This document shows, one piece after another, positions 379-14,145 of a DNA stretch of 14,145 nucleotides. How positions within the stretch are numbered: the first letter of the stretch is position 1; every line of letters begins with the position of its first letter. Location: contig JADGJL010000765.1 of the NCBI GenBank assembly GCA_027600665.1, forward strand, positions 1 to 14,145, read 5' to 3'. The notes under the pieces were generated by a model that was not told where the DNA came from, searched no databases, and saw nothing but the letters and a program-made list of their open reading frames with translations. The stretch is from Irineochytrium annulatum (lineage: Eukaryota; Chytridiomycota; Chytridiomycetes; Chytridiales; Chytridiaceae). The translations under genes were made by a program, and so were the position numbers.

Positions 379-767
379 TCAGTCCCAAAAGAAACGTACG
401 ATCGCGTCGTCGTCATCGTCATCGTCGTCCCCGTGGTCGTACTCGTCGTCGCTGTCGGATAGGTTGCCGGAGGGGGGCGTGTCTCCTCTCGCTGCAGAAA
501 TATCGATTCGGGAGTCAGAAATAAAACCATCAACACAAGGAAACGAAAGACATCCGACCATCCCGGATCCCAAATCCAGACCACCTTCCCTCTCCCCCTC
601 CCCTTTATGCAGATTTACTTACGAGGCAGATCGCTCGTATGCCTGCTGTTGATCCTCTGGTCGATCTCATCGTTCTCCTCGTCGTGGTCGTGCGGATCCT
701 CGTCCTCGTCCGTCAGCTCCATCGCCTCGTCGTAGAAGTTGTTGGAGACGGCCTTGAGCTGCTGCAT
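379..767 (-). CDS. Small, highly acidic protein of unknown function (two exons)
   Basis: Exon 1 is 767-623 and exon 2 is 491-379; together they make 258 nt, or 85 residues plus a TGA stop. The 131-bp intron (492-622) has a strong GTAAGT donor, a CTGAC branch-like site and a TTTCTGCAG acceptor, and the phase (1) matches on both sides. The protein begins MQQLKAVSNNFYDEAMEL and then becomes dominated by Asp and Glu, including a run of eight Asp near the C-terminus, ending AIVRFFWD. The first 18 residues may form a helix and the rest is probably disordered. An in-frame TGA lies three codons before the ATG, so this is the likely start unless another exon is spliced in upstream. I do not recognise the family. 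It may be an acidic chaperone-like or regulatory subunit, but nothing in the sequence proves that. Confidence 0.6.
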
Positions 768-1320
768 CTCTTCTCAGCAGGAGCGAGAGATCCAGCGATG
801 GAAGGTCAAATGTTCGAACACCGCAATATGGAACTGGGGCGAATTCGTTTGTGCAACGAACGAGGATTGTCCTCAGTCAACGTGCATTAATGCATCTGGG
901 GGCTATGGTAAGAAGTATTTATTCTTGAGGCAGAGAGATCGGGGCAGATGCGGGGAATCGTCGACCCAGGTGAGAATTGGGCTGGCGCGGGAATTTGAGA
1001 GTGGTTTGTCGGCGGCGAGGACGTGGTGGCATAACAGTGCGACGGGTCGACGGTGGGATAAGCGGCTGACGTGGCAACTTGAGCATGCTACCCCAACGTC
1101 GTGCCATCACAATGGGTCTTGGCCATACATGTATACTGCATATAATGCATCCACGTGCTGCAATACAATGATAAGATACTGTTCAGAAGAAGATACAAAA
1201 CATCAAAAAGCAAATATATGAAACCGGGACAAAAAAAACAAACAAAACAACAACCGTAAACGATGTAAAAGACCGATTCTTTACTACAAAAAATGGTCCG
1301 CCAATGCATCAACACATTAA
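768..1320. other. Intergenic region between acidic gene promoter and giant gene 3' end
   Basis: Both flanking genes are on the minus strand, so this stretch should hold the 3' UTR of the giant GTPase gene (near 1200-1320) and the promoter of the acidic gene (near 768-960). On the minus strand the part after the giant gene's stop is T-rich (complement of 1229-1251), as is common in fungal 3' regions. An AATAAATA word, read on the minus strand, lies near 917-926 and could act as a TATA-like element. A palindromic GTGCATTAATGCA stands at about 881-893. Long ORFs here have no convincing composition and I call no gene. Confidence 0.4.
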
Positions 1321-4300
1321 TCACACAACAAATAGCCTCGGCTCATAACCTGGCAGCTCATCATCCACTGCTTCATCCTCCTCCTCCTCATGCACGCCCA
1401 TCATGACGCTCCTCCTCTTCCTCTCGGAGTTGGACCTCTGCACAGCCGCCGTCGCGTCCTTGTAGAACATATTGATCCAGTTCGACGACGCTTTACCGGC
1501 TTTCCGAAGCAAAAGCCTGCCCTGTCCCCCGAGCAGCTCCTCTTTCGATGCCCCTCTCTCGACCCGCTTTTCCTCGAACCCTTTCAGAGCAACTTTTAGC
1601 ATGTCGACGAGGTTGTCCTCGCTCTCGAGCTCGAGAGCAAGCTTCTCGCTAATCTTCCCTCTAACGCCGCCGGCAACCGAGCTCTCACGCGGCGGGTTCC
1701 ACAACGGCGCCTTCATGATCGACGACCGCCGCGTCACGCCGCTCTGAGCCGCCGCAGTCCTTGGAGCGCCGTCGACTGCCCCCGCACCACTACCAGCAAC
1801 CTCGTTGCCCGCGACCTTCTGAAGCCTGCTCTCCGTCGCCCGCCGCACGACCTCCCCGAACACCTTATCCGCCGCCTCCGTGAATACACCCTCCGGGTCG
1901 ACCGCGCTAACGGTCTTCACCTTCTCGTCGCTCGTTATCAAGCCCTCAAGCGATTCGCCCGACGTCCTGAGATGTTCACACGGGAACACGGCCCTGCCCT
2001 CCCCACCCCGCATCCCCACAACCGATAGGTGGAACGCCGCAGGAGCGCACCGCGCGCAGACCTGAAGCCTTGAGTTATTTGTCGCCCAGGACCACACCAT
2101 TAAATCCTCCAATCCGATGCCCCCCGCGCGCGCCCTCCCCGCGCTCTGCGACCTCCGGATCGACGCGAGCGAGCCAGCCAGCCTCCTCGACCCTTTGGGC
2201 AGCATCCGCTCCTCCAACAAAAAGAGCGAAGACGCGACGGTAAAGACTCCGCTCACGACCCTCGCGCCATCGACGATTAACCTCCCTCCCTCCTCCTTCT
2301 CGAGGTCCCTCATGGCGATCGACTGGCCCTCGACGGCCTCCGTGATCCTCCTACACCCGCGGTCCATCCACTCCATCCAATCAGGGGACGAGCTGTCCAT
2401 GTCCTTGATCCAGAGGCCTGTCATGCACTCCAGCGTGCCGAGGATCGAGGCCGCCATGCCGTCGAGCGTGCCGTCCGCCTCCCAAAGCGGCGTACCGACA
2501 AGGATGCCGGACCCCGTCGGCGGCGGTGTCGTGATAGCGGCCTTGATGAGGGGGTAGATATCGGATCGGGTGATGCGCTCGAGGTCCTGGACGGGGTCCT
2601 GCACGCCGAGAAGCCGCTGAAGGGAGTACAGCTGACCCGGGTTCACGAGGAAACGGTCTTGGAATCGGTCAAGGTTAGAGGAGGACGCCTGCTGCTCCTC
2701 CTCCTCATTTGCAAAGACGAGCATCAGGAAGGCGGAGGCGAGGGTGAGGGATACGTGGCGGGCGAGGGATGGTGCTATTCGCTTCTTCTGGTCGCTGACG
2801 AGGCGGAGGAGGGACGCGATGGCTCTATACGGTTGGTTGATCATAACCTCACCGACAGCTAAAACGAAGATGATCAGAATCTCAAACCGGTAAGGAACAT
2901 TACGCATACCAATGTTGATGACGACCTCCGGCGTCTCCGCGCCAAGTTGAACGACATCGGTTAACATGCCGAGACCCAGCTGCACGTAGGGCGTCCCGCA
3001 GTGGCCAACCGACGGGTCCAAAGCTTCCATCTTCCCTCCAATGAAGGTTTCCAGTCCAACCTGGTTACTCCGCTCCAAGAACTCCACGACCTCGCCATAG
3101 GTTTTGATCTCTTTCAAATCAATCTTCTTCGTCGTCGGGGATGCAGACGTCTTCAGCTCCTCGCCGCTCTTATCGACCTCTAGGCACGACAACGGGAACG
3201 TCCCCTGATCTTTCCCTCCCCGCTCTCCAAGCGCCGTCACGCCGTCCTCCATCACCATAAATACCTTGACGTTATCCCCAACGTTGAGGTCGATCTCAAG
3301 GTCCTCTCCTCCCCTCTTCCCCCGATGCTTGACCCCAACTCGATAAACCGCGTTCGGGGTCTTTTCCACATCTTCCTTCGTCACAGGTCTCGTTGTCCCA
3401 CCACCTGCCTTGGGTCCCCCGAAATCACCCGCCAGAGCCCGTGCGAACCCCTCATCCGCGCCATGGGTCCACTGCAGACTCCTTAGCGTTTTCCCAACCT
3501 CGACCCAGAGTGCGCCCATATTCCCGAGCTCCCTGGCGTGCGCAGACGCGTTCTCGGCCTTAAGGAACAGCATGGCGCTCTTGGCGTGGTGGCCGAGCGC
3601 GCCAGCAAGGTCACCCATCGAGTACTTGACCTTGCCGAGGTTAGTCTGGATGGCCGCGCGATACGTGAGTTCTGCCTCGCCCAGCGAGCCCGCGTGCGTC
3701 TGGAGAACTTGAAGGCCGAGCGTCTGGGCTTTGAGGGAGTCGTCGAGGGAGCCGAGGGTAGAGTAGCAAAGGCCACGGTGGATGAGGGAGCGGACGTAGG
3801 ACAGGAGCGTGGCGCGGTGCATGTATGAAAGTGCCGGCCCGCGCTTCGAGATGCTCCCGGAGCGCTTGAGCGTACCCCCTGTCGTCGACTGCGATGGTGT
3901 CGGGACAGGGAGGCGGGAGAGTGTGTTCTCGCAAAGGCGGATGCAGGCGTCGTACCACTTGCCAGCGTCGACGACCTTGCCCATCGTGAGATTGGAATGG
4001 CCGACGTTAATGAGGAGACGCATGAACCAAATTAGCGCGACCGGGCCTCGGGCGTGAGACCAGTTCGTGATAGGGTACAATGGAGGGCCGGTACTCATTG
4101 CCGCCCTCTCGACCGAGATCGGACCCATCGGGTCGCCGTTAAGGGAGGTCAGGATGAGGTTTATGCCAATTTCGTCCTGCAGTTGCACGTTCTTGGCGCT
4201 TATTACGTACTTGCACGATTTGACCCAAGCTGACTCCAGAAGGGAAAGCGACTGGCCAAACTTTCCCTGCATTCGCTCGGCACAGCCAAGGTTGGAGATG

Positions 4301-7300
4301 GCGCTAGCTTCGCGGATAAGGTCGCCCGTTTGTTCTGCGAGCCGTTGAGCGTCCCTCCAGAGCCCCATAGCCTTCCGCGACGACGCATTGTTCGTGTACT
4401 CTGTGACTCCTTCATTAAGCAGCTCGTCAATCCTCGTTCCCTGGCCCATCGATGCTACGGACGCGTCGTTGCCCTCGGGTTTCCAATCCCACGCGTTCTA
4501 TGCACATCCGATCAGTAAAGAGACCACTACAAGCATCGTCATGACAACACTCACATGCGGCACGCTCCCGGTTACCTCATCCAACAGTTGTGAGCTCGTG
4601 ATGATCGACGCGCCTTCCCATACAAACGGCATATTCCCCAACTCCGCCGGCGTCACCGTCGCGCCTTCCGCCTTCTCCTCAACCTTCGTCGGCGCCCTCT
4701 TCGGCCTCTTCAAGCTCATCTTCCCCTTTAAGTCCGTCTTCCCCGTCACCGCCTCTGCCTTCCTCGCCTCCAACAACGACCTTACCAAGTCCGACCTTAC
4801 GGCGGCCAGGCTAACCTCGCACTCGTCCACGACGGCCGTGGACCAGTCGAGCCGCCGAAGCCAGATTTCGAGCTCGGACTCGACGGCCTTCAGTACGGGC
4901 GTGAGGGAGCCGCCGACGCCGTCCATCAGGCGGCGGACGGAGCAGGACCAGGCTGTGGCAATAGACGTCCGCATAGAGTCCACGGCGCCGTCAAGCCTAT
5001 TGGAGGGGACGGGCATGCCCGTCATAACACCGAGGAAGAGGGCAATAAAAAGTGGACATGGCTGGGCCGGGGTGAACGAGGACGCCGCGGGTTTCGGGTT
5101 CGGCAGGCTTTGGTATGCGTAGAGGGTGGCGATGTTTTCGGCGGTCCGGGCAGTGCCCTCGAGGCCGGGGAGGGCAGTCGTAAGGATGGTCTGGATGATG
5201 GAGGGGAGTGGGTGGGAGCTTGACGGCGGCTCGTCGTCGGCGGTAATATCGGCCTCCTCATCGAGGCCACCCGACAACCATGAGGACAGGAAAAGGTTTG
5301 TTTCCTCGAGGACAAGCGATTGGAAGATCTTCGCCGGTGGCAGATCTTCGGAGTTCACGGTCGGGAGAAGCTTGCGCAGCTCGGAGGTGAGGGAGTTCCG
5401 GACAAAGACCATCTGCGTCCGCAGTTGATCTAACAACCGATCCAAGAAGGCTTTTAACGTGTACGCGTTCCTAAAAGGCAATCCATTAGGACGCGCTCAG
5501 AAACCGAAGATCAATCTTTGCGAAAAAAACTAACCTAAGCGGATTGTCCGTCGAGAAAACTCTGAACACCTTCTCCAAAACCCGCACACACCTTTCCCGG
5601 CACAACTTTGCCGCCTCCGTCGCCAACCTCGCGCTCTCCCCCGTCGCATCCGTTCCGCCCCCAACACCTACCCCCAGCAGCACGCTAAGCGCCAACGACG
5701 CATCCGCTGCACCCGGCCAGTCCTTCCTCGCCAGCGCCTTCCTCAGCCAAAGAACCGCCGCCTGCTTCCCCTCATCCGTGCCCTTCGCTGCCAGCAGCCC
5801 CGCGAGCGCCCGCATGGCCTCCGGTTCGCCCTTTTCCGCGGCCTTTGTAAACCACCGCTCGGCGCCAGGAAGATCGACATCGACCGAGTCCCCGATCACC
5901 ATGGCGACCCCGAGCTCGAGCTGCGCGCGTACGGAGCCCCGACCGGCAGCCAGGGTAAGCTGCCTGATGCTTTTGGTGGCGTCACCTGGCCCGCCCTCGG
6001 TCGTTGGGCGGTGGAGGTGGGAAAGGCGATGGGCGGCCGTGGAGGCCAGGACCAAGTTGGCCTGGTCATCGGAGGCGGACTTAAAGAGCTTCACAACGTC
6101 CTTGCGGGTTGGGAGGGATGTCGCGACGCCCGGCCTGTGTAGGCCGAGCTCTAGACATCGAGCGGCCGTCAAATACTGCTTCTCCTCAAGAGCGGCCTCG
6201 TAGGTCGTTGCGGCGGCGGCGGGGTCGTCGTACCCGATGTCCTCGAGCGCCGAATAGAAGGAGCGAATCAAGGCGCCTTCGAATTCGGAGGAGAGGGTAG
6301 AGTTGGAAGGAGGTCGGTCAAAAAGGTCGATGATGGTTTTGAGGAAATCGCGCGTCGTCTTGAGCTGGGTGGTGGTATTGTTGACGATCTTGTTGTAGGT
6401 TCCAGTGATGTTTGCGAGTCTGGCGGTGGCGGTGATGGTCTTCAAAGTCTTTCGACGGGGTATCAGAAACTCGATGAGGGACTGCAGGTCGTCCATATCA
6501 TTCAATTGCATATTATCTTGGGCGGCGGAGACATAAAATTGCGTCAAGCCTGGGATTGTTCAAAGGAAGTTAGAAAGGTTACAAAGAGCCACTGCAATAT
6601 TGCCCCAACATACCAGGAATGCCAATCTGATCCTGCACCATCGGCATGGCCTGCCGCTTCCAGTCCGAGTACTTCTTTGCCACATCGCCTCCTCCCTTCG
6701 CGTACAGCTGATTCCAAATGTTGTCGAGTTTATTGACGACGAGAATCGGGACGGTGGCGGTATCCAGGGTCTGGCTGATCATCCAACGAGGCACCTAACG
6801 GAAGATCGTCAATATCCGGCTCCGGGAGAGAAAAGCACGATCGCAACTCACATTTGCAACTTGGGATTGCGCCACCACAAAGATAACGACATCCACGCTC
6901 TCCGTCTGTAACAGCGCCCCCAAATCCCTCGACGGCGTCCGTCCCTCCACCGCAGCTCCCGCCTCCTCGCTTGCCCCATCGGCCTCTGCATTCGTCCCCG
7001 CGTGCACTGGCGGACTTAAACTCAGTGCGACGCTCTCCACACATGGATCGCCGACATTTAACCCCGACAAGCTGTAACCCCCGCCGTTACTCCTCCCGGC
7101 GCCCGCGGCGGGCGGGACATCGGACGCGATGGTGTCAAAGAAGGAGATGTGCCTTAGCGTCTCGATTTGATGGCTAACGACGACGAGGTCCCCAAAGGCC
7201 TCCTGAAAGCGGCGGGAGCGCGGCGGCAAGGGAGTCGGGGTGGCGGTGGATGGGGAGTCGGAGGGGGATGGGCCCGAGTAAAGCGGAGAGTGAAACTTGG

Positions 7301-8299
7301 AGGAGGTCGCGTGGACGAAGGCGTAGTTGTGGACCGTTACATCCTTTAGAGAGCGGATTAGTTTTGCGTTCATGTGTGACTAGAATAGTGGCAGTTCACA
7401 CCTCTCCGAACAGATTCTCCTTCCCGATAATCCTATTTAGTACGGCGCTCTTGCCGCTCCCCTGCGGCCCAACAATCGCCACGCTCAAACTCCTTTCCGG
7501 CAACATCTCCCCGGCGTTCCTCAAGTCCGCCCGCAGCTTGCTCAGCGCCTCGATGGCCGGCAACATCTCGGTCTTGATCTTCCCCGCGGACCCGGACGCG
7601 CTCGCGCTCCCGGTGCTCGAGAACCATGCGAGGTCGCATGAGAGACTAACGCCGAGCCGCATCAGCGCTGGTGAGCGCTCAAGGATCAAGTCGAGCTCCT
7701 GTCGGAGGCGGGAGAAGTTGTCGGAGAAAAGGGACCGGAGGTGGACGAGGTCAGACTTGAATTTAGGTAGCTCGCGGTCTTCAAACTCTGTCGGGTCCGT
7801 TATGGATGCGGTGGGGGGGATTGTCGTAGACGCTGGTATCGGAGCCGGGACTGGAGGCTTGTTGGCGTCTGTCACGGAGGCTAGAGAGAAGGAAAGGGAC
7901 GAGGTTAGAATTATGAGTGAGGTCGTTGGTCCTATTGCGCGGTGATTCGCCTTCCAGCATCAATAACCGGCGCACCCGGCGTCAGCATTACAAGCGGGTT
8001 CCCCCATCGGCCAGACAATGTTCCGCCAAAGTCGAACTCGATGGCCGACTTGTTCAGGCGCGGACCATTTGACGAGGTGCCGTCAACCGTAGGCCCTCGC
8101 GCGTTTGGCCACTCAGGCCCGTCCTGTTCGCTCCTGATTCCAGACCAAACCACGCATCGCCGCCCCGTCGGCTCATTTACAACTCCCCAGCATCGCCAAA
8201 CTCACTGGAATCACTGGACTTGGCAGCGGGGACCGTGGATGACGAGACGGATGACGTCCGCTCCGGGGGCAGGTGATCATCGGAAGCTGTCGTAGACAT
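1321..8299 (-). CDS. Giant dynamin-like GTPase with Sel1, TPR and SH3-like domains (8 exons, 2,178 aa)
   Basis: Exons: 8299-8181, 8133-7976, 7880-7402, 7343-6852, 6794-6614, 6549-5535, 5470-4555, 4497-1321. They total 6,537 nt with matching phase at every join. An in-frame stop precedes the ATG in a good context (CCGCGATGT). Order: Ser-rich disordered N-terminus; helical segment (about 125-225); P-loop GPQGSGKS (230-237); NKLD G4 motif (437-440) and YVSAA G5-like segment (482-486); helical stalk-like region; Sel1-like repeats (about 667-775); a second helical region (816-1120); TPR-like repeats (about 1137-1466); SH3-like domain (about 1502-1562); then roughly 600 unrecognised residues ending in an acidic tail. 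It probably binds and hydrolyses GTP in the cytosol or on membranes and assembles through its repeats; this is inferred from the domains. The donor of intron 2 (7975) is weak and is the least certain join. The alternative is two adjacent genes split at the ATG 4449. Confidence 0.75.
3172..4449 (-). other. TPR-like repeats followed by an SH3-like domain
   Basis: In the last exon, helical pairs resemble TPRs of the LGN/GPSM type. One unit contains ASAISNLGCAERMQGKFGQS (near 4310-4255); a later one contains AAIQTNLGKVKYSMGDLAGA and then ARELGNMGALWVEVGK. After a Gly/Thr-rich linker, an SH3-like stretch is encoded at about 3172-3354, with DLEIDLNVGDNVKVFMVMED, then TALGERGG and GTFPLSCLEV. These match the SH3 pattern of an acidic hydrophobic strand, G-D, a GxxG-like turn and a G-x-F/V-P-xx-x-V end. 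The canonical first ALYDY strand is weak (VYRVGVKHRG). Confidence 0.6.
4498..4554 (-). other. Intron joining the GTPase half to the TPR-SH3 half
   Basis: Read on the minus strand, this 57-bp segment starts GTGAGTGTT, has TTTACTGATC as a branch-like site and ends GTGCATAG. Removing it joins GSVPH in phase 0 to NAWDWKPEGNDASVAS and the ATG at 4449, with no stop. Its length matches the neighbouring introns at 6795-6851 (57 bp) and 7344-7401 (58 bp). Without splicing the upstream frame would end after a short hydrophobic tail (LVVVSLLIGCA). Confidence 0.75.
5654..5980 (-). other. Sel1-like repeats in the giant protein
   Basis: About three units of 36-40 residues are visible, with the Ala/Gly/Leu pattern of Sel1-like repeats: AAGRGSVRAQLELGVAMVIG, then AERWFTKAAEKGEPEAMRAL, then AVLWLRKALARKDWPGAADA. 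Such repeats form alpha-alpha superhelices that scaffold protein complexes (family knowledge). They follow the GTPase and a helical region on a single exon. Confidence 0.7.
6614..7470 (-). other. GTPase core of the giant protein (G1 to G4 motifs)
   Basis: G1/P-loop codons GPQGSGKS are at 7447-7470, preceded by a beta-strand-like LSVAIV and followed by AVLNRIIGKENLFGE, as in dynamin-like large GTPases. G4 NKLD is at 6723-6734, preceded by the strand TVPILVV, and G5-like YVSAA follows in the next exon. Between them lie a strand HISFFDTIASD (about 7119-7151) at the G3 position and a strand VDVVIFVVAQSQ (from about 6901 downward). Spacing and strand order fit a TRAFAC-class large GTPase, closer by eye to the dynamin/mitofusin group than to small Ras-like proteins. 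The subfamily is not settled. Confidence 0.75.
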
Positions 8300-9083: not shown

Positions 9084-9871
9084 ATGGCCAAGACAAAGCA
9101 GACGACGGCCGCGCTGGCGGAGACGACGACACGACGGAGCATCTTCAGCCGTGAGTCGCCTACCTTCCCTCCCGACGATGATCCTAACCGCTTCCATCCC
9201 CAGGCCCCGCTGACCTGTTCTTCGTCTTCTTCTTCCTCCTTCATATCCCGGTCGGTGCCTCACCTTCCCGTCTTTCGTTACTGACCCCTTCATTTTGCGA
9301 TCAGACGACGCTCCTGATCGGCCTCCAGAACTTCATTCCCGCCGAGCACGTCCCGCCCGCGCTGCGTGATGCGCTCGTGAGCTGGGCTGACCAGAGCGGT
9401 GACCCTTGGTTGACGAGGATCAAATATGTAGGGAGACCGCGTGAATCGATTCACTATCCTCTTTTAAACTATGACGCAGGAGGAGCCTCTCCCGGCCTGG
9501 TGGCTCGGCATCATCGCGGGCGAGGTCGCGTATCAGCTCCCTTGGTTCTTCTGGTACATCTACATGGCCGTAATCGGTAAACGTTCAACGCTTTTTCATT
9601 GCCACGTTTTCTCCCAACTGAGACTTGTCGAAAAACAGATTCGCCCAACATCCGCATACCATCCATCATCTACGCTTCTCACGTCATGACCACCATGGTC
9701 CCCATCCTGACCGAGGTCGTGTACGGCTACCCGGACCTGCCCGACGCGCAGAGGACGATGATCCTCGGCGCTTACGTGCCGTACTTTATCGTTCCGGGTC
9801 TCTTGCTGTTGAGGATGACGGTCTTCTGGAGGTCTACGGACAAGGTGAAGGCGAAGGCGAAGAAGGAATGA
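9084..9871 (+). CDS. TMEM97/sigma-2 receptor-like EXPERA-domain membrane protein
   Basis: Five exons: 9084-9150, 9204-9250, 9305-9427, 9480-9576, 9639-9871. They give 567 nt and 188 residues, close to the 176 of human TMEM97. All introns are 52-62 bp GT-AG with matching phase. The ATG sits in a good context (TCGCCATGG). Family landmarks are HIPTTLLIGLQ (36-46), GDPW (70-73), EEPLPAWW (80-87), GEVAYQLPWFFW (93-104), IPSIIYASHVMTTMVPIL in the third helix region, and YVPYFIVPGLLLLRM in the last helix. Four membrane segments are expected. The C-terminus KAKKE fits a KxKxx ER-retrieval signal, in line with an ER location. TMEM97/EBP/TM6SF2 relatives act in sterol handling (family knowledge); the exact role here is inferred. 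The equivalent of human Asp29 is Gly44. Confidence 0.9.
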
Positions 9872-10227
9872 GCGTGCATTGGGTGGAATCGCCCCCGTTT
9901 GCCCTTTTGCAGCTGTGTTTTCTCGTTCCAGCTGTGTGTTCATGAGATCTTGGTCAAAGTGGGAATACCTACGTGGTTGTTGGAATGAGGTTTGGACATA
10001 AGCGTCTAGGCGAAAGGGAGTGATCGTTTAGTGGACGTTTTATCGTTTCTGTGGTGTTTTTAGGAAATATTTGAGGTGCTTTAAATATGCGGTATCATTT
10101 CACGGTTTCGTGAACGTGACCACGGTGGTGGACACTCTGGACCCCAAAGACCATCATGTCCAGCCATGCGATAGAGATCTACCGGCAATCCCAATGTCGA
10201 CGACGGTGACGCGTCAGAATCTCTCTT
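9872..10227. other. Intergenic region between TMEM97-like and permease genes
   Basis: This 356-bp stretch holds the 3' UTR of the TMEM97-like gene and the promoter and 5' UTR of the permease gene, both on the plus strand. A TTTAAATAT word at 10080-10088 is TATA-like and lies about 140 bp upstream of the permease ATG. I see no additional gene, repeat or structured RNA. Confidence 0.35.
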
Positions 10228-12881
10228 ATGGAGCCCACGGTCGCAACGTTGAAGGGTGCGTCCCTGTCCGCCACGGGGTTCGCGTCGTCCCCTCCCCTTG
10301 CAAGCAGCAACGGGGACCTGAGGGTCGACGGCGCCGACGCGGGCCTCAGATCGGCCGTTGGAGGGACGCAGTCGAACGTGTCGCACTTGTCGCGCGTCTC
10401 GGTCGCGATGGTCGCGAAGGTCGTCGGGGCCGAGTTCGAGGAAAGGGACGACGCGTTTTACGAGGAGGCGAGCCTGAAGGGCGTGCCTCTGCGGCCTTGG
10501 CATCAATGGGGTCTGCAATACGTTTTTTTTTGAAAACCAAAGTGCTTTTTATCCTTTTTGATCATGGGTCTAATTGTTGAATTCCTTGTTAAAAAGGGCT
10601 TCTTGTCGCAATGATGTTTTCGAGTAACTCCCAGTTCTGGTGCGATTTTATCTCGTCGTTCTCCTTGTGATTTACTGTCTCACTTTGTCTGGTCACAGGA
10701 ACTTCGGTCTCATGAACGGGTGGGGGTCACTGATGGTGTCGACGATCATCTCGAACGTCTACTTCTGCGCGCTCACCGCCGTCTTTACCGAGCTCATGAC
10801 CATGCTGCCGTTCGCAGGTATTCAACCAAAAAAAAAGAAAAAAAGGGATACGTCAGAGCCTCACACTACAAAACGCAGGCGGGATGGCCTCGTTTAGTCG
10901 CGCTGCATTTGGACCTTTTGTTGGCTACGCTGTGGGGAATGCGGAGCTGTGGGAGTACGCCGTGTTCATAGGTAGGAAGATTCGCCCAATGTCGTCAGTA
11001 TTTTCTTTTATTAAAAAAACACCTTGCAGCCTACGGGACTGTCGTGATCGGGCAATGGTACATTCCGCTTCACTCTTTATCGTCTTTGACTTGACACACA
11101 GGGTAACTGCGACAGCTGGCACGTCAAGTAGCCTAGAGCCCTTGTGGTGGGGCATACAGATGCTGGTGGCGTTTTCGATGCAGCTGCTCGGGACCGTACA
11201 CTACGTGACGCTGCTTCTAGGTCTAGCGGCTGTCTCTGGGCTGGTTAGTGTGCCCCAGACAATTCCTGAGAGTTTGCAGCTAACGAGGAATCAGTCAGTG
11301 CTTGGAACAAATCTCGCCCTTGTGTCTGGGTTCGACGTTAGGTGGGCGCTGCTGGGATTCACGAACACGACCGGGAGTTTCGAAAACATCAGCATGGGCT
11401 CCGAGGCCCTAGAAGCTGCGTTCCCTCTCGGAGCAATGGGTACCAACTCTCTCTGTTTTTTCTTACGTTTCTCAACTTAATTGGGGCATACGAAGGTGTT
11501 CTTAGCTCCCTGCCGACCGCTATATTTTGGTTCATCGGGATCGAATTCCTGCCCCTGATGGCAGAGGAATCTTTGGACTTTGTCAAGGACGCTCCAAAGG
11601 TGGTCGCTGCGACAGTCATTCCCGTGTCGATCCTTGCGTGGATGGTCCTCATAATTCAGCCGGCTGTTAGGTACGTCCAAGGCTCTTATTTATGTGCCCC
11701 TGATGTCCCACACTTCCATCAGCCCGGGCGCAGAAGCTCTCTCGTGGGCGATCAGTCCGTCTGCAGAGCTGCTTACGACCGCTTTCGGTGGGAATTCGAC
11801 TGCACAGGTGTATACAGCAACCTCGTTTGCTACATTCATCATTCCGGTAGAGTGATACAAGTGAAATTTTTTATTTAAAAAGACCAATATGTGTTAGGGA
11901 TACGCTGCAATCTTGACGCTTATCTACGCATTCACCCGCCAAACCTTCTCCGTAAGGCTGTCCCCCTCCTGAGGAAAAAATCACCGCTAAACCGTTTTTT
12001 TTTTTTTGTTTTTTCGCTCAAAGCTCGCAAAGGCCGGCTACATGCCCACCTTTATGACAAAAACCCGCCTACCCTTCACAAGTGCGCGGGTCCCGTGGGT
12101 GATCATGATGATCTGCATCGTCATCGTCTACCTCATCGCCATCGTCGCCTGGTACGAGCCCGGGAGCGAGATCTCGGTCGCGCTCGGCAACGCCGGGATC
12201 ATCTACACGACCATCAGTTACATCGTCACGTCCCTCGCCTATATAAAGCTGAGCTACAGTTGCCCGGATGTGAAGAGGCCGTTCAAGATTCCATACGGGT
12301 TGGGCCCGTACGCCGCTGGATGTAAGCGCCTTCTTCCCAAGCTTCATGTGCAAAATCCAAAACCGGGGCCAACGTATATCTTCCCGATGACCCTTTTTCT
12401 TTTTTTGGCAGACGTCGCGTTGGTTTCTTCGGCATCCCTGGCGTATATGGCGTCTGAGGAGTCGTATCAGCTAGCCTGTGTGATCTGCGCCGTCAAGATC
12501 ACGCTGTCATTTATCGAGATGTGGATCTTCCACCGTAAGCACTTAGTGCTCTCACCTGAAGGTAAAAATTCTTTCACACGATTTTTTTTTTTTCAATTTG
12601 CGCGCCGGTGAAGCATGTATCTGACGCAATATGTTCATCCCCGTCGCTTGCGTGTGGCCAACGTAGAGCAATTCATACAAGCTCACGTGAGCAAGACCGC
12701 GCCGCTTACTGACCTCCCAAACGTCAGCCTGGACGCGGTGGAGCATATGAGCCAAAGTCGCAAGTCCCTCGGGCGTGGTTGCTACGGGCCGACACCTCGT
12801 TCTGCGTTGGAGGAGAAGAAGGACGAGGATCAGAAGGAGAGCTTGATCAGCGTGAGATCCGTTGGTAGGAACTGTTCTTAG
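10228..12881 (+). CDS. Amino acid/ethanolamine-type permease, APC superfamily (12 exons, 639 aa)
   Basis: Exons: 10228-10510, 10597-10639, 10699-10817, 10879-10971, 11030-11057, 11102-11439, 11496-11670, 11723-11846, 11898-11951, 12024-12321, 12412-12561, 12667-12881. They total 1,920 nt, with consistent phase throughout. The protein has a hydrophilic N-terminus of about 90 residues, then a multi-helix transporter (about 12 membrane segments expected) and a hydrophilic tail of about 70 residues. Landmarks are WNFGLMNGWGSL (109-120), the APC motif AGGMASFSRAAFGPFVGY (148-165), LPTAIFWFIGIEFLPL then AEES (307-327), YAFTRQTFSLAKAGYMPTF and LSPEEQF near the end. These resemble ethanolamine permeases and related amino acid permeases, which import small amines or amino acids across the plasma membrane. 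The substrate cannot be read from sequence. Exon 5 is only 28 nt and intron 5 only 44 bp. Intron 1 and intron 11 boundaries are the least certain; both were chosen by phase and alignment to the family pattern. Confidence 0.88.
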
Positions 12882-13342
12882 ACGCGCGGGCGACGCGTAT
12901 CGCATAGCCTCTACGGTGCAGGCTTCTTCTGCTTTGTTAATCAATGTAGAAGTTTCTCGGTTCATTCGATGGCGACGGTTGATGGTTTTACTTCCTTATT
13001 AAGATGCCCTCGAACATATACGAAAGAAATAAATTGATTGCCTTCATAAAATGAAGTAAAGGTGGGGATGCAGGCGCATCTTCTGCAGTTACAGCTTTCA
13101 TTTATATTGAACACTATTGAGGCACATACAGAGGTCACATACACCAACATATCCCACATACGAACACAAGTAAGAGATGTACTAGAAAAAAGAAAAAAAA
13201 AAAAAGGAAGGACAGGCATCTACAATAGACAAGAGTTTTGGAATAAAGACATAATATGTAGATTCTAGAAAAGGGGGTACATGGCGACAACAAATGGCAT
13301 ACGGCGGAACACGCGTCATCCTTAGAGAACTCAATACAAGCG
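12882..13342. other. Convergent intergenic region with low-complexity A tract
   Basis: This region lies between the 3' ends of the permease (plus) and the Mpv17-like gene (minus). It holds an A-rich tract at about 13183-13207 and AATAAA words on the plus strand at 13028-13033 and 13242-13247. The first, 147 nt after the permease stop, could be its polyadenylation signal. The poly-A tract read on the other strand is a T-rich 3' region for the Mpv17-like gene. No gene is called here. Confidence 0.4.
13028..13033 (+). promoter_or_regulatory. Candidate polyadenylation signal of the permease gene
   Basis: AATAAA occurs 147 nt downstream of the permease TAG stop in an A/T-rich stretch. The hexamer is common by chance in such sequence, and fungal genes often lack a strict signal. 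Confidence 0.25.
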
Positions 13343-14101
13343 TTATGCCGACTTCCCCTTCCCTCCAGCCTTCCCCGCACCGCCCAGAGCCTTCTTCCGT
13401 TGTGCAGCCAGCTTGGTCGCGATGTTGATGTACAGCCTTATGACGATGGGGTTTAGGTCAAAACATGATGCTTTGATAAGGTACTCGAAATAGAACTCAC
13501 CCGATCGTGAAAGCCACCAAGTTGAAGAAGGGAAGCCAGAGCGCGGGAGGCAGGAACTGGAAAACCGACGCGCACCCGTGTCAACGTTCAAGAAAAAGAA
13601 AGAAAAACACAAGGGCATGCGAGAAAAATGACACTCACGTTGAAAGCGATCGTCTGTACGGTCGGGAAGACGACCCACGTGGTCTTCATGACGGCCATAA
13701 ACCTGCTCCGGACGGACTTGATGCTTTCAGAGATGTTCTGGCCGGCAATGAGAGCCATCGTGAAGAGGTAGACTTGATAAAACGACGAAAAGTTTAAGTC
13801 AATTTCATATCCACACTGCCATCAACCAACTCACCCGAGTTCAATATCGGGCTCACGACCAAGTTCGTCGCGAGCAACTTGGCGATGGCCCAGCCGGTCC
13901 CCGTCTTGCCCTTGAACACCTTCTCGAGCTGGGCATACAGGTGATGCCCCAAGGGCCCCGAGATGAACAGGCCGTAGGCCGACATCTTGACCCACTTCCC
14001 GTCGACCTTGCCGGTCGTCACCAGGGACGCGATCAGCTCCGACAGGCCGTTCAGGGTCGCGGCCGTCAGGGACTTGGTGAGGATCGGCTTGGTCTGGAGG
14101 C
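13343..14101 (-). CDS. Mpv17/PMP22-family membrane protein, N-terminus beyond the window
   Basis: Four exons are visible: 14101-13835, 13772-13639, 13556-13501, 13436-13343. They encode about 183 residues and end in TAA. Introns of 62, 82 and 64 bp have GTGAGT donors and matching phases. Family landmarks in order are LQTKPILTKSLTAATLNGLSE (start of the domain), KMSAYGLFISGPLGHHLYAQL (the YGxxxxGPxxHxxYxxL signature, with Leu in place of the usual Trp), a VYLFTMALIAGQ helix, the pattern around MKTTWVVFPTVQTIAFNFLP, and ALWLPFFNLVAF. The tail is Lys/Gly-rich (KKALGGAGKAGGKGKSA). Members are four-helix proteins of the inner mitochondrial or peroxisomal membrane, possibly channels or stress-related (family knowledge). 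The visible part starts after an acceptor AACCCAG; probably only some 10-20 N-terminal residues are missing. Confidence 0.88.
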
Positions 14102-14145
14102 CTGGGTTGAGGTGGTGAGGGTGAGGGGGAGGGGGGGGGGGGGGG
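14102..14145 (-). other. 3' end of an intron of the Mpv17-like gene, cut by a G15 run
   Basis: On the minus strand this reads as a long C/T-rich tract ending CTCAACCCAG, a typical polypyrimidine tract, branch-like site and acceptor in front of the first visible exon. On the plus strand the last 15 bases are all G (14131-14145). The donor and first exon are not in the window. Confidence 0.55.

What the first reader, a model, noticed from the sequence alone, without database searches (positions are those of the whole stretch)
1321..8299. A single giant gene encodes GTPase, Sel1, TPR and SH3-like modules in one chain
Eight exons join with consistent phase to 2,178 codons. The order is P-loop GTPase (GPQGSGKS, NKLD), helical stalk-like region, Sel1-like repeats, further helices, TPR-like repeats, SH3-like domain and about 600 unrecognised residues. 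Ordinary dynamins carry PH or GED modules and mitofusins carry membrane segments; I know of no described family with this order. A GTP switch followed by two kinds of repeat scaffold and an adaptor domain suggests a regulated assembly or sensing protein. It is analogous in general design to NTPases with repeat sensors used in fungal self/non-self recognition, though it is not of the NACHT or NB-ARC class. The function is inference.
Basis: partly seen in the sequence, partly recalled or inferred. Interest (0 to 1): 0.78.

Follow-up and report, generated by a model that had tools for sequence, protein, structure and literature searches.

The report
Chytrid GTPase fused to repeat scaffolds
A chytrid fungus carries one very large gene that joins a GTP switch to two kinds of repeat scaffold, an adaptor-like domain and a long unknown tail; related chytrids have the same chain, so it is a real protein family, apparently undescribed, whose function has not been tested.

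The parts
8202..8299 (-). exon 1 with the proposed ATG; N-terminal extent uncertain
   Evidence: open frame and splice phase; NCBI's model starts later, at about 7988
   Evidence: open frame in phase with both neighbours; its last residues are in NCBI's protein P0001; no convincing alignment to P0002 here
7402..7880 (-). exon 3: N-terminal helices and GTPase G1 (P-loop GPQGSGKS at 7470-7447)
   Evidence: helices and G1 in the AlphaFold model of relative P0003
7567..7650 (-). probable extra in-frame intron of 84 nt (GTTAGT...ACCGAG), or else a species-specific insertion of 28 residues
   Evidence: a gap in the five relatives that cover the place
7344..7401 (-). intron 3, 58 nt; NCBI uses a 22-nt version
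   Evidence: the 12 extra residues of P0001 face a gap in the five relatives that cover the place
6852..7343 (-). exon 4: GTPase with G2 Thr (7337-7335), G3 Asp-Thr (7136-7131) and a following SGLxxxDP segment
6614..6794 (-). exon 5: G4 motif NKLD (6734-6723) and following helix
5535..6549 (-). exon 6: end of the GTPase, helices, Sel1 repeats (about 6070-5588)
   Evidence: PDB phmmer of P0001 to Sel1 proteins, best E 1.5e-20; Pfam Sel1 at or over cut-off in P0002, P0003, P0005; structure matches
4714..5560 (-). helical stalk region after Sel1 (residues about 800-1060), interrupted by the intron 5534-5471
   Evidence: helices in the AlphaFold model; VIA alignment ranges to mitofusins reach its last long helix
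4555..4629 (-). strongly conserved PFVWEGAS..SSQLLDEVTGS block before the TPR array
   Evidence: mean pairwise identity 0.68 over 21 pairs
3457..4449 (-). TPR array, close in fold to LGN/Pins, NASP and kinesin light chain TPRs
3169..3354 (-). SH3-like domain
   Evidence: SH3_2 found in 5 of 7 members, best E 3.3e-6; profile against PDB lists 29 chains, 24 of them SH3 by name or recall, best SH3 E 0.0092
2206..3006 (-). conserved helical C-terminal block of unknown family, crossing the intron 2909-2859
   Evidence: no PDB profile match, no credible Pfam match; mean pairwise identity 0.48
1951..2118 (-). WSWA..CxxC..FPCxH block, a possible zinc site
   Evidence: CxxC in 6 of 7 members, FPCxH in 7 of 7
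1321..2858 (-). exon 9 with the stop codon; true C-terminus (...ELPGYEPRLFVV)
   Evidence: P0002, P0004 and P0005 also end within about ten residues after an LPxY motif

Best explanation
The gene encodes a multidomain large GTPase of chytrid fungi. Its N-terminal half looks like the head and neck of a mitofusin or bacterial dynamin-like protein: N-terminal helices, G domain, further helices and, after an intervening Sel1 solenoid and stalk, a long helix that may return to the neck. Sel1 and stalk would then occupy the place where mitofusins have the trunk and membrane segment. A TPR array, an SH3-like domain and a conserved tail follow. Proposed mechanism: GTP binding closes or pairs the G domains, the movement passes through the neck, and partners held on Sel1, TPR and SH3 surfaces are brought together or released: a nucleotide-gated assembly scaffold, probably soluble or recruited to membranes by partners. 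Shown by computation: one chain, module order, GTPase class, conservation. Predicted only, with weak support: neck packing. Inferred: GTP gating, partners, cellular role.
Confidence: 0.47

Rival explanations
1. Pseudo-GTPase scaffold: the G domain binds nucleotide constitutively, or not at all, and serves only as a structural or dimerisation module; the conserved working part is the TPR-SH3-tail half.
For: DxxG of G3 is lost in 5 of 6 and G4 is HKVD in P0004. The GTPase half is less conserved (mean identity 0.37) than TPR (0.53) and the C-terminal helical block (0.48). Two TPR-bearing relatives without a detected GTPase exist in this genome.
Against: G1 lysine-serine is kept in 6 of 6 and NKxD in 5 of 6, which a fully dead site would not require.
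Confidence: 0.27
2. Membrane tether or remodelling protein in the mitofusin or BDLP manner, with a membrane-binding element in the stalk or tail.
For: Fit to Fzo1, MFN1, MFN2, LeoA and BDLP. A moderately hydrophobic stalk stretch scores 1.63 in P0007, and a different stalk stretch scores 1.63 in the window protein; a tail helix scores 1.69 in the window protein.
Against: None of these is strong in every member: 0.54-1.63 at the stalk place and 1.06-1.69 at the tail place across 7 members; the usual cut-off of about 1.6 is recalled. No dedicated membrane predictor was available.
Confidence: 0.18
3. NLR-like sensor for self/non-self or infection, as the first reader suggested by analogy.
For: General design only: an NTPase followed by repeat scaffolds. 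Weak P-loop matches to NACHT and nSTAND models in one or two members.
Against: No NACHT match over cut-off and no NB-ARC match listed; one GTPase-bearing copy detected in the genome; only short two-copy tandem repeats in the gene; the TPR part is among the conserved parts; no PADLOC match for P0001, though P0002 matches a TPR model at 2.4e-7 and two others weakly.
Confidence: 0.05
4. Annotation artefact: two or more neighbouring genes wrongly joined.
For: The NCBI model itself makes one false join at its C-terminus, to the ORF at 773-624.
Against: Five separately deposited relatives have the same full order, and a sixth has Sel1 through tail.
Confidence: 0.03

Closest known systems
Mitofusins / Fzo1 (dynamin superfamily)
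   Different: Sel1 solenoid and stalk in place of trunk and membrane segment (if the neck reading is right); TPR, SH3-like and a 600-residue tail added; no strong membrane segment common to the members; degenerate G3
Bacterial dynamin-like proteins (BDLP, LeoA)
   Same: G domain followed by helical bundles; both appear in the Foldseek list
   Different: No Sel1, TPR or SH3 modules in those proteins as far as I recall; target-normalised TM-scores only 0.21-0.22
Sel1-repeat proteins (SEL1L, HcpC, LpnE)
   Different: Those carry no GTPase as far as I recall
LGN/Pins and kinesin light chain TPR scaffolds
   Different: Fold likeness only; no shared GTPase or Sel1 parts, as far as I recall
Fungal STAND/NLR receptors (NACHT, NB-ARC)
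   Same: NTPase plus repeats in broad outline
   Different: GTPase class, single detected copy, no long near-identical repeats

Membership tests
Dynamin superfamily | P-loop GxxxxGKS (G1) and NKxD (G4) | tested here: met
   6 of 6 and 5 of 6 members with the region; the window protein has both
Dynamin superfamily | G3 motif DxxG (DLPG / DTPG type, motif recalled) | tested here: not met
   Asp-Thr kept in 6 of 6, but the Gly is present only in P0004 (DTAG); the window has DTIAS
Dynamin superfamily | Pfam Dynamin_N over its cut-off | tested here: not met
   17.8 bits against 27 in P0001; below cut-off in P0002, P0004, P0005 and not listed for P0003 and P0006 in whole-protein scans; in single-domain scans 5 of 6 match, best E 0.0004, bits shown only for P0003 (15.4)
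Dynamin superfamily | G domain followed by helical neck and trunk | tested here: inconclusive
Mitofusins | membrane-spanning segment between the neck helices (recalled) | tested here: inconclusive
   stalk hydropathy 0.54-1.63 across 7 members, mean 1.02; no dedicated TM predictor
Sel1-repeat proteins | Sel1 repeats by profile and structure | tested here: met
   over Pfam cut-off in P0002 and P0005, at it in P0003, below it in P0001, P0004, P0006; P0001 to PDB Sel1 proteins E 1.5e-20; structure
TPR proteins | TPR repeats by profile and structure | tested here: met
SH3 domain proteins | SH3 profile match | tested here: met
   SH3_2 in 5 of 7 members at E up to 0.1, best 3.3e-6; the window segment has 19.9 bits against a cut-off of 21.8; PDB profile search: 24 of 29 chains are SH3 by name or recall, none below E 0.009, and the first row is a designed TIM barrel. 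The AlphaFold model of this part was too poor to test the fold
STAND/NLR receptors | NACHT or NB-ARC NTPase | tested here: not met
   no NACHT match over cut-off and no NB-ARC match listed; NACHT in P0002 has 11.9 bits against 26.7 and covers 20 residues at the P-loop; nSTAND1 in 2 of 6 members at best E 0.022

The most novel reading that the evidence does not exclude
A branch of the dynamin superfamily, so far seen only in chytrids, in which the membrane-acting trunk has been swapped for a Sel1 solenoid inserted between the neck helices, turning a membrane-fusion engine into a soluble, GTP-driven protein-assembly machine with TPR and SH3 docking sites and a new C-terminal domain.
Probability: 0.32. 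Interest if true: 0.68.

Novelty: new variant of a known kind. Interest (0 to 1): 0.5.

Why it matters
If the neck packing is right, it would show how a membrane-remodelling GTPase can be rebuilt into a protein scaffold by replacing its trunk, and it gives a defined set of seven proteins in which to test that. The conserved C-terminal ~600 residues gave no PDB profile match and no credible Pfam match here, so they may hold a new domain. It also corrects a public gene model.

Tried and rejected
NLR-like sensor: disfavoured on NTPase class, copy number, conservation and absence of long near-identical repeats. Bacterial or viral origin: two scans with the family alignment, one of a prokaryote-genome and one of a viral collection, gave pattern matches (17 and 24) but no confirmed relative; each used two short peptide patterns, so they are weak negatives. 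Wider distribution: the three protein searches each scored only 7,982-7,992 top-word candidates. One search did not return P0003 and P0004 although pieces of both were in its query, so absence outside chytrids is not shown. P0008 (CHAT/TPR protein) and P0009 (vertebrate TTC28) (E 9.1e-5 and 1.7e-4) were dropped as generic TPR matches and are not counted as members. Weak PDB matches of a tail piece to holo-ACP synthase (E 0.018) were set aside because the profile of six members gave none. The C628 P-loop match was read by eye as a Sey1/RHD3-type GTPase (recalled), not a family member. The C-terminal half model (pLDDT 47.3) was used only for the TPR array. The family GTPase profile against ORFs of the genome's Dynamin_N loci gave at most 17 bits, the best being that C628 ORF.

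Full report
WHAT THE WINDOW IS. The best protein match to the window's gene is P0001, an NCBI 'hypothetical protein HK101_010703, partial' of Irineochytrium annulatum, whose contig is 14,145 bases long, like the window. This is a chytrid of the order Chytridiales. The genome held for the window has 26.9 Mb in 1,082 contigs.

GENE MODEL. On the minus strand, nine exons (8299-8202, 8133-7976, 7880-7402, 7343-6852, 6794-6614, 6549-5535, 5470-4555, 4497-2910, 2858-1321) join in phase to 2,154 codons. The eight introns are GT-AG, 51-95 nt. Relatives settle three disputed places. Intron 7401-7344 is 58 nt; the NCBI model ends it 36 nt earlier and so adds 12 residues that face a gap in the five relatives covering the place. 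Intron 2909-2859 is retained in the NCBI model, adding 17 residues that 6 of 6 relatives lack. The C-terminus ends at 1321 with ELPGYEPRLFVV; P0002, P0004 and P0005 also end within about ten residues after an LPxY motif, whereas the NCBI model jumps to an ORF at 773-624 for its last ~50 residues. An 84-nt in-frame stretch, 7650-7567, begins GTTAGT and ends AG; its 28 residues face a gap in the five relatives that cover the place, so it is probably a further intron, which would give 2,126 codons. Its GC content (0.65) is higher than that of the other introns (0.39-0.59), so this is not certain. The first two exons have no relative to support them, and NCBI starts at about 7988.

ONE CHAIN, NOT A MIS-JOIN. 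Two searches found six relatives: Phlyctochytrium bullatum (P0002), Blyttiomyces sp. (P0003), Chytridiales sp. JEL 0842 (P0004 and P0005), Zopfochytrium polystomum (P0006) and Cladochytrium tenue (P0007, 1,665 residues, lacking the N-terminal part). Five of the six run collinear over the full order, and the sixth from Sel1 to the tail. A FastTree tree groups the window protein with P0002, and P0006 with P0007. The third search added none and missed two known members, so it says nothing about wider absence. In the window's genome one copy with the GTPase was detected, plus two TPR-bearing relatives without a detected GTPase on contigs C450 and C409; the C450 frame runs to its contig end.

GTPASE. 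In the six members that cover it, G1 is GxxxxGKS in 6 of 6, the G2 Thr is kept in 6 of 6, the G3 Asp-Thr in 6 of 6 but with DxxG only in P0004, and G4 is NKxD in 5 of 6 (HKVD in P0004). Single-domain Pfam scans of six members give RsgA_GTPase (4 members, best E 6.7e-8), MMR_HSR1 (5, 6.7e-5), Dynamin_N (5, 0.0004) and GTP_EFTU (5, 0.0034); Dynamin_N is under its cut-off wherever bits are shown. NCBIfam gives Era first (3.7e-5 for P0001) and a bacterial dynamin at 0.0038. A profile of six members against PDB sequences gives EngA (2.8e-8) ahead of dynamin-1 (0.0045) and mitofusin-1 (0.014). So the TRAFAC GTPase class (class name recalled) is well supported, and the dynamin branch is not settled by sequence.

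CONSERVATION. Mean pairwise identity: PFVWEGA block 0.68, TPR 0.53, SH3 0.53, C-terminal helical block 0.48, WSWA block 0.48, GTPase and neck 0.37 (15 pairs), helices before Sel1 0.31 (15 pairs), Sel1 0.36, last tail segment 0.31, stalk 0.28 (21 pairs where not stated). The docking half is mostly more constrained than the switch half.

MEMBRANE. Mean 19-residue hydropathy over aligned members peaks at 1.39 in a tail helix (1.06-1.69 across 7), 1.37 in a TPR helix (1.02-1.55) and 1.31 in the G domain (6 members); the best aligned place in the stalk averages 1.02 (0.54-1.63). Single members reach 1.78 (P0006, G domain). This argues against, but does not exclude, a membrane segment.

MECHANISM. 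Best reading: nucleotide binding closes or pairs G domains; the neck transmits this; Sel1, TPR and SH3 surfaces gather partners. The pseudo-GTPase rival is serious because of the G3 loss. An NLR-like role is disfavoured.

LITERATURE. Nine searches listed no paper that I recognised as describing this architecture; four of them returned nothing, and of the rest I saw listings only, except passages of two papers. One search lists five papers that mention the genus; I read none. A survey of dynamin-superfamily proteins in eukaryotes, including chytrids (PMC11789081), has no occurrence of Sel1 or TPR in its main text; I saw seven passages and that count only.

VERDICT. A real, conserved chytrid protein family, apparently undescribed: a new arrangement of known modules with an unknown tail. 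The function is unproven.

Noticed in passing
window 624-773, minus strand: A short acidic ORF, with an aspartate-rich open stretch downstream at about 390-495, which NCBI's model fuses to this gene's C-terminus; it looks like the start of a separate small gene.
   Followed up: partly
window 9084-9871, plus strand: A spliced gene whose last part matches EXPERA/EBP (Pfam E 7.6e-11); by eye a TMEM97-like protein (recalled).
   Followed up: partly
window about 10180-12880, plus strand: A many-exon membrane protein that looks by eye like an amino-acid permease; the two pieces given to Pfam gave no match.
   Followed up: partly
window 13340-14145, minus strand: An incomplete gene that looks by eye like the Mpv17/PMP22 family; the piece scanned gave no Pfam match.
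   Followed up: partly
L016:8637-9899 (contig C450) and L018:2913-5355 (contig C409): Two TPR regions related to this gene's (E 9.3e-23 and 2.9e-9) with no detected GTPase, suggesting that the TPR module belongs to a wider chytrid family.
   Followed up: partly
P0004 and P0005 (Chytridiales sp. JEL 0842): Two full-length members of the family in one species, only 50% identical over the TPR-to-tail part, so probably an old duplication.
   Followed up: partly
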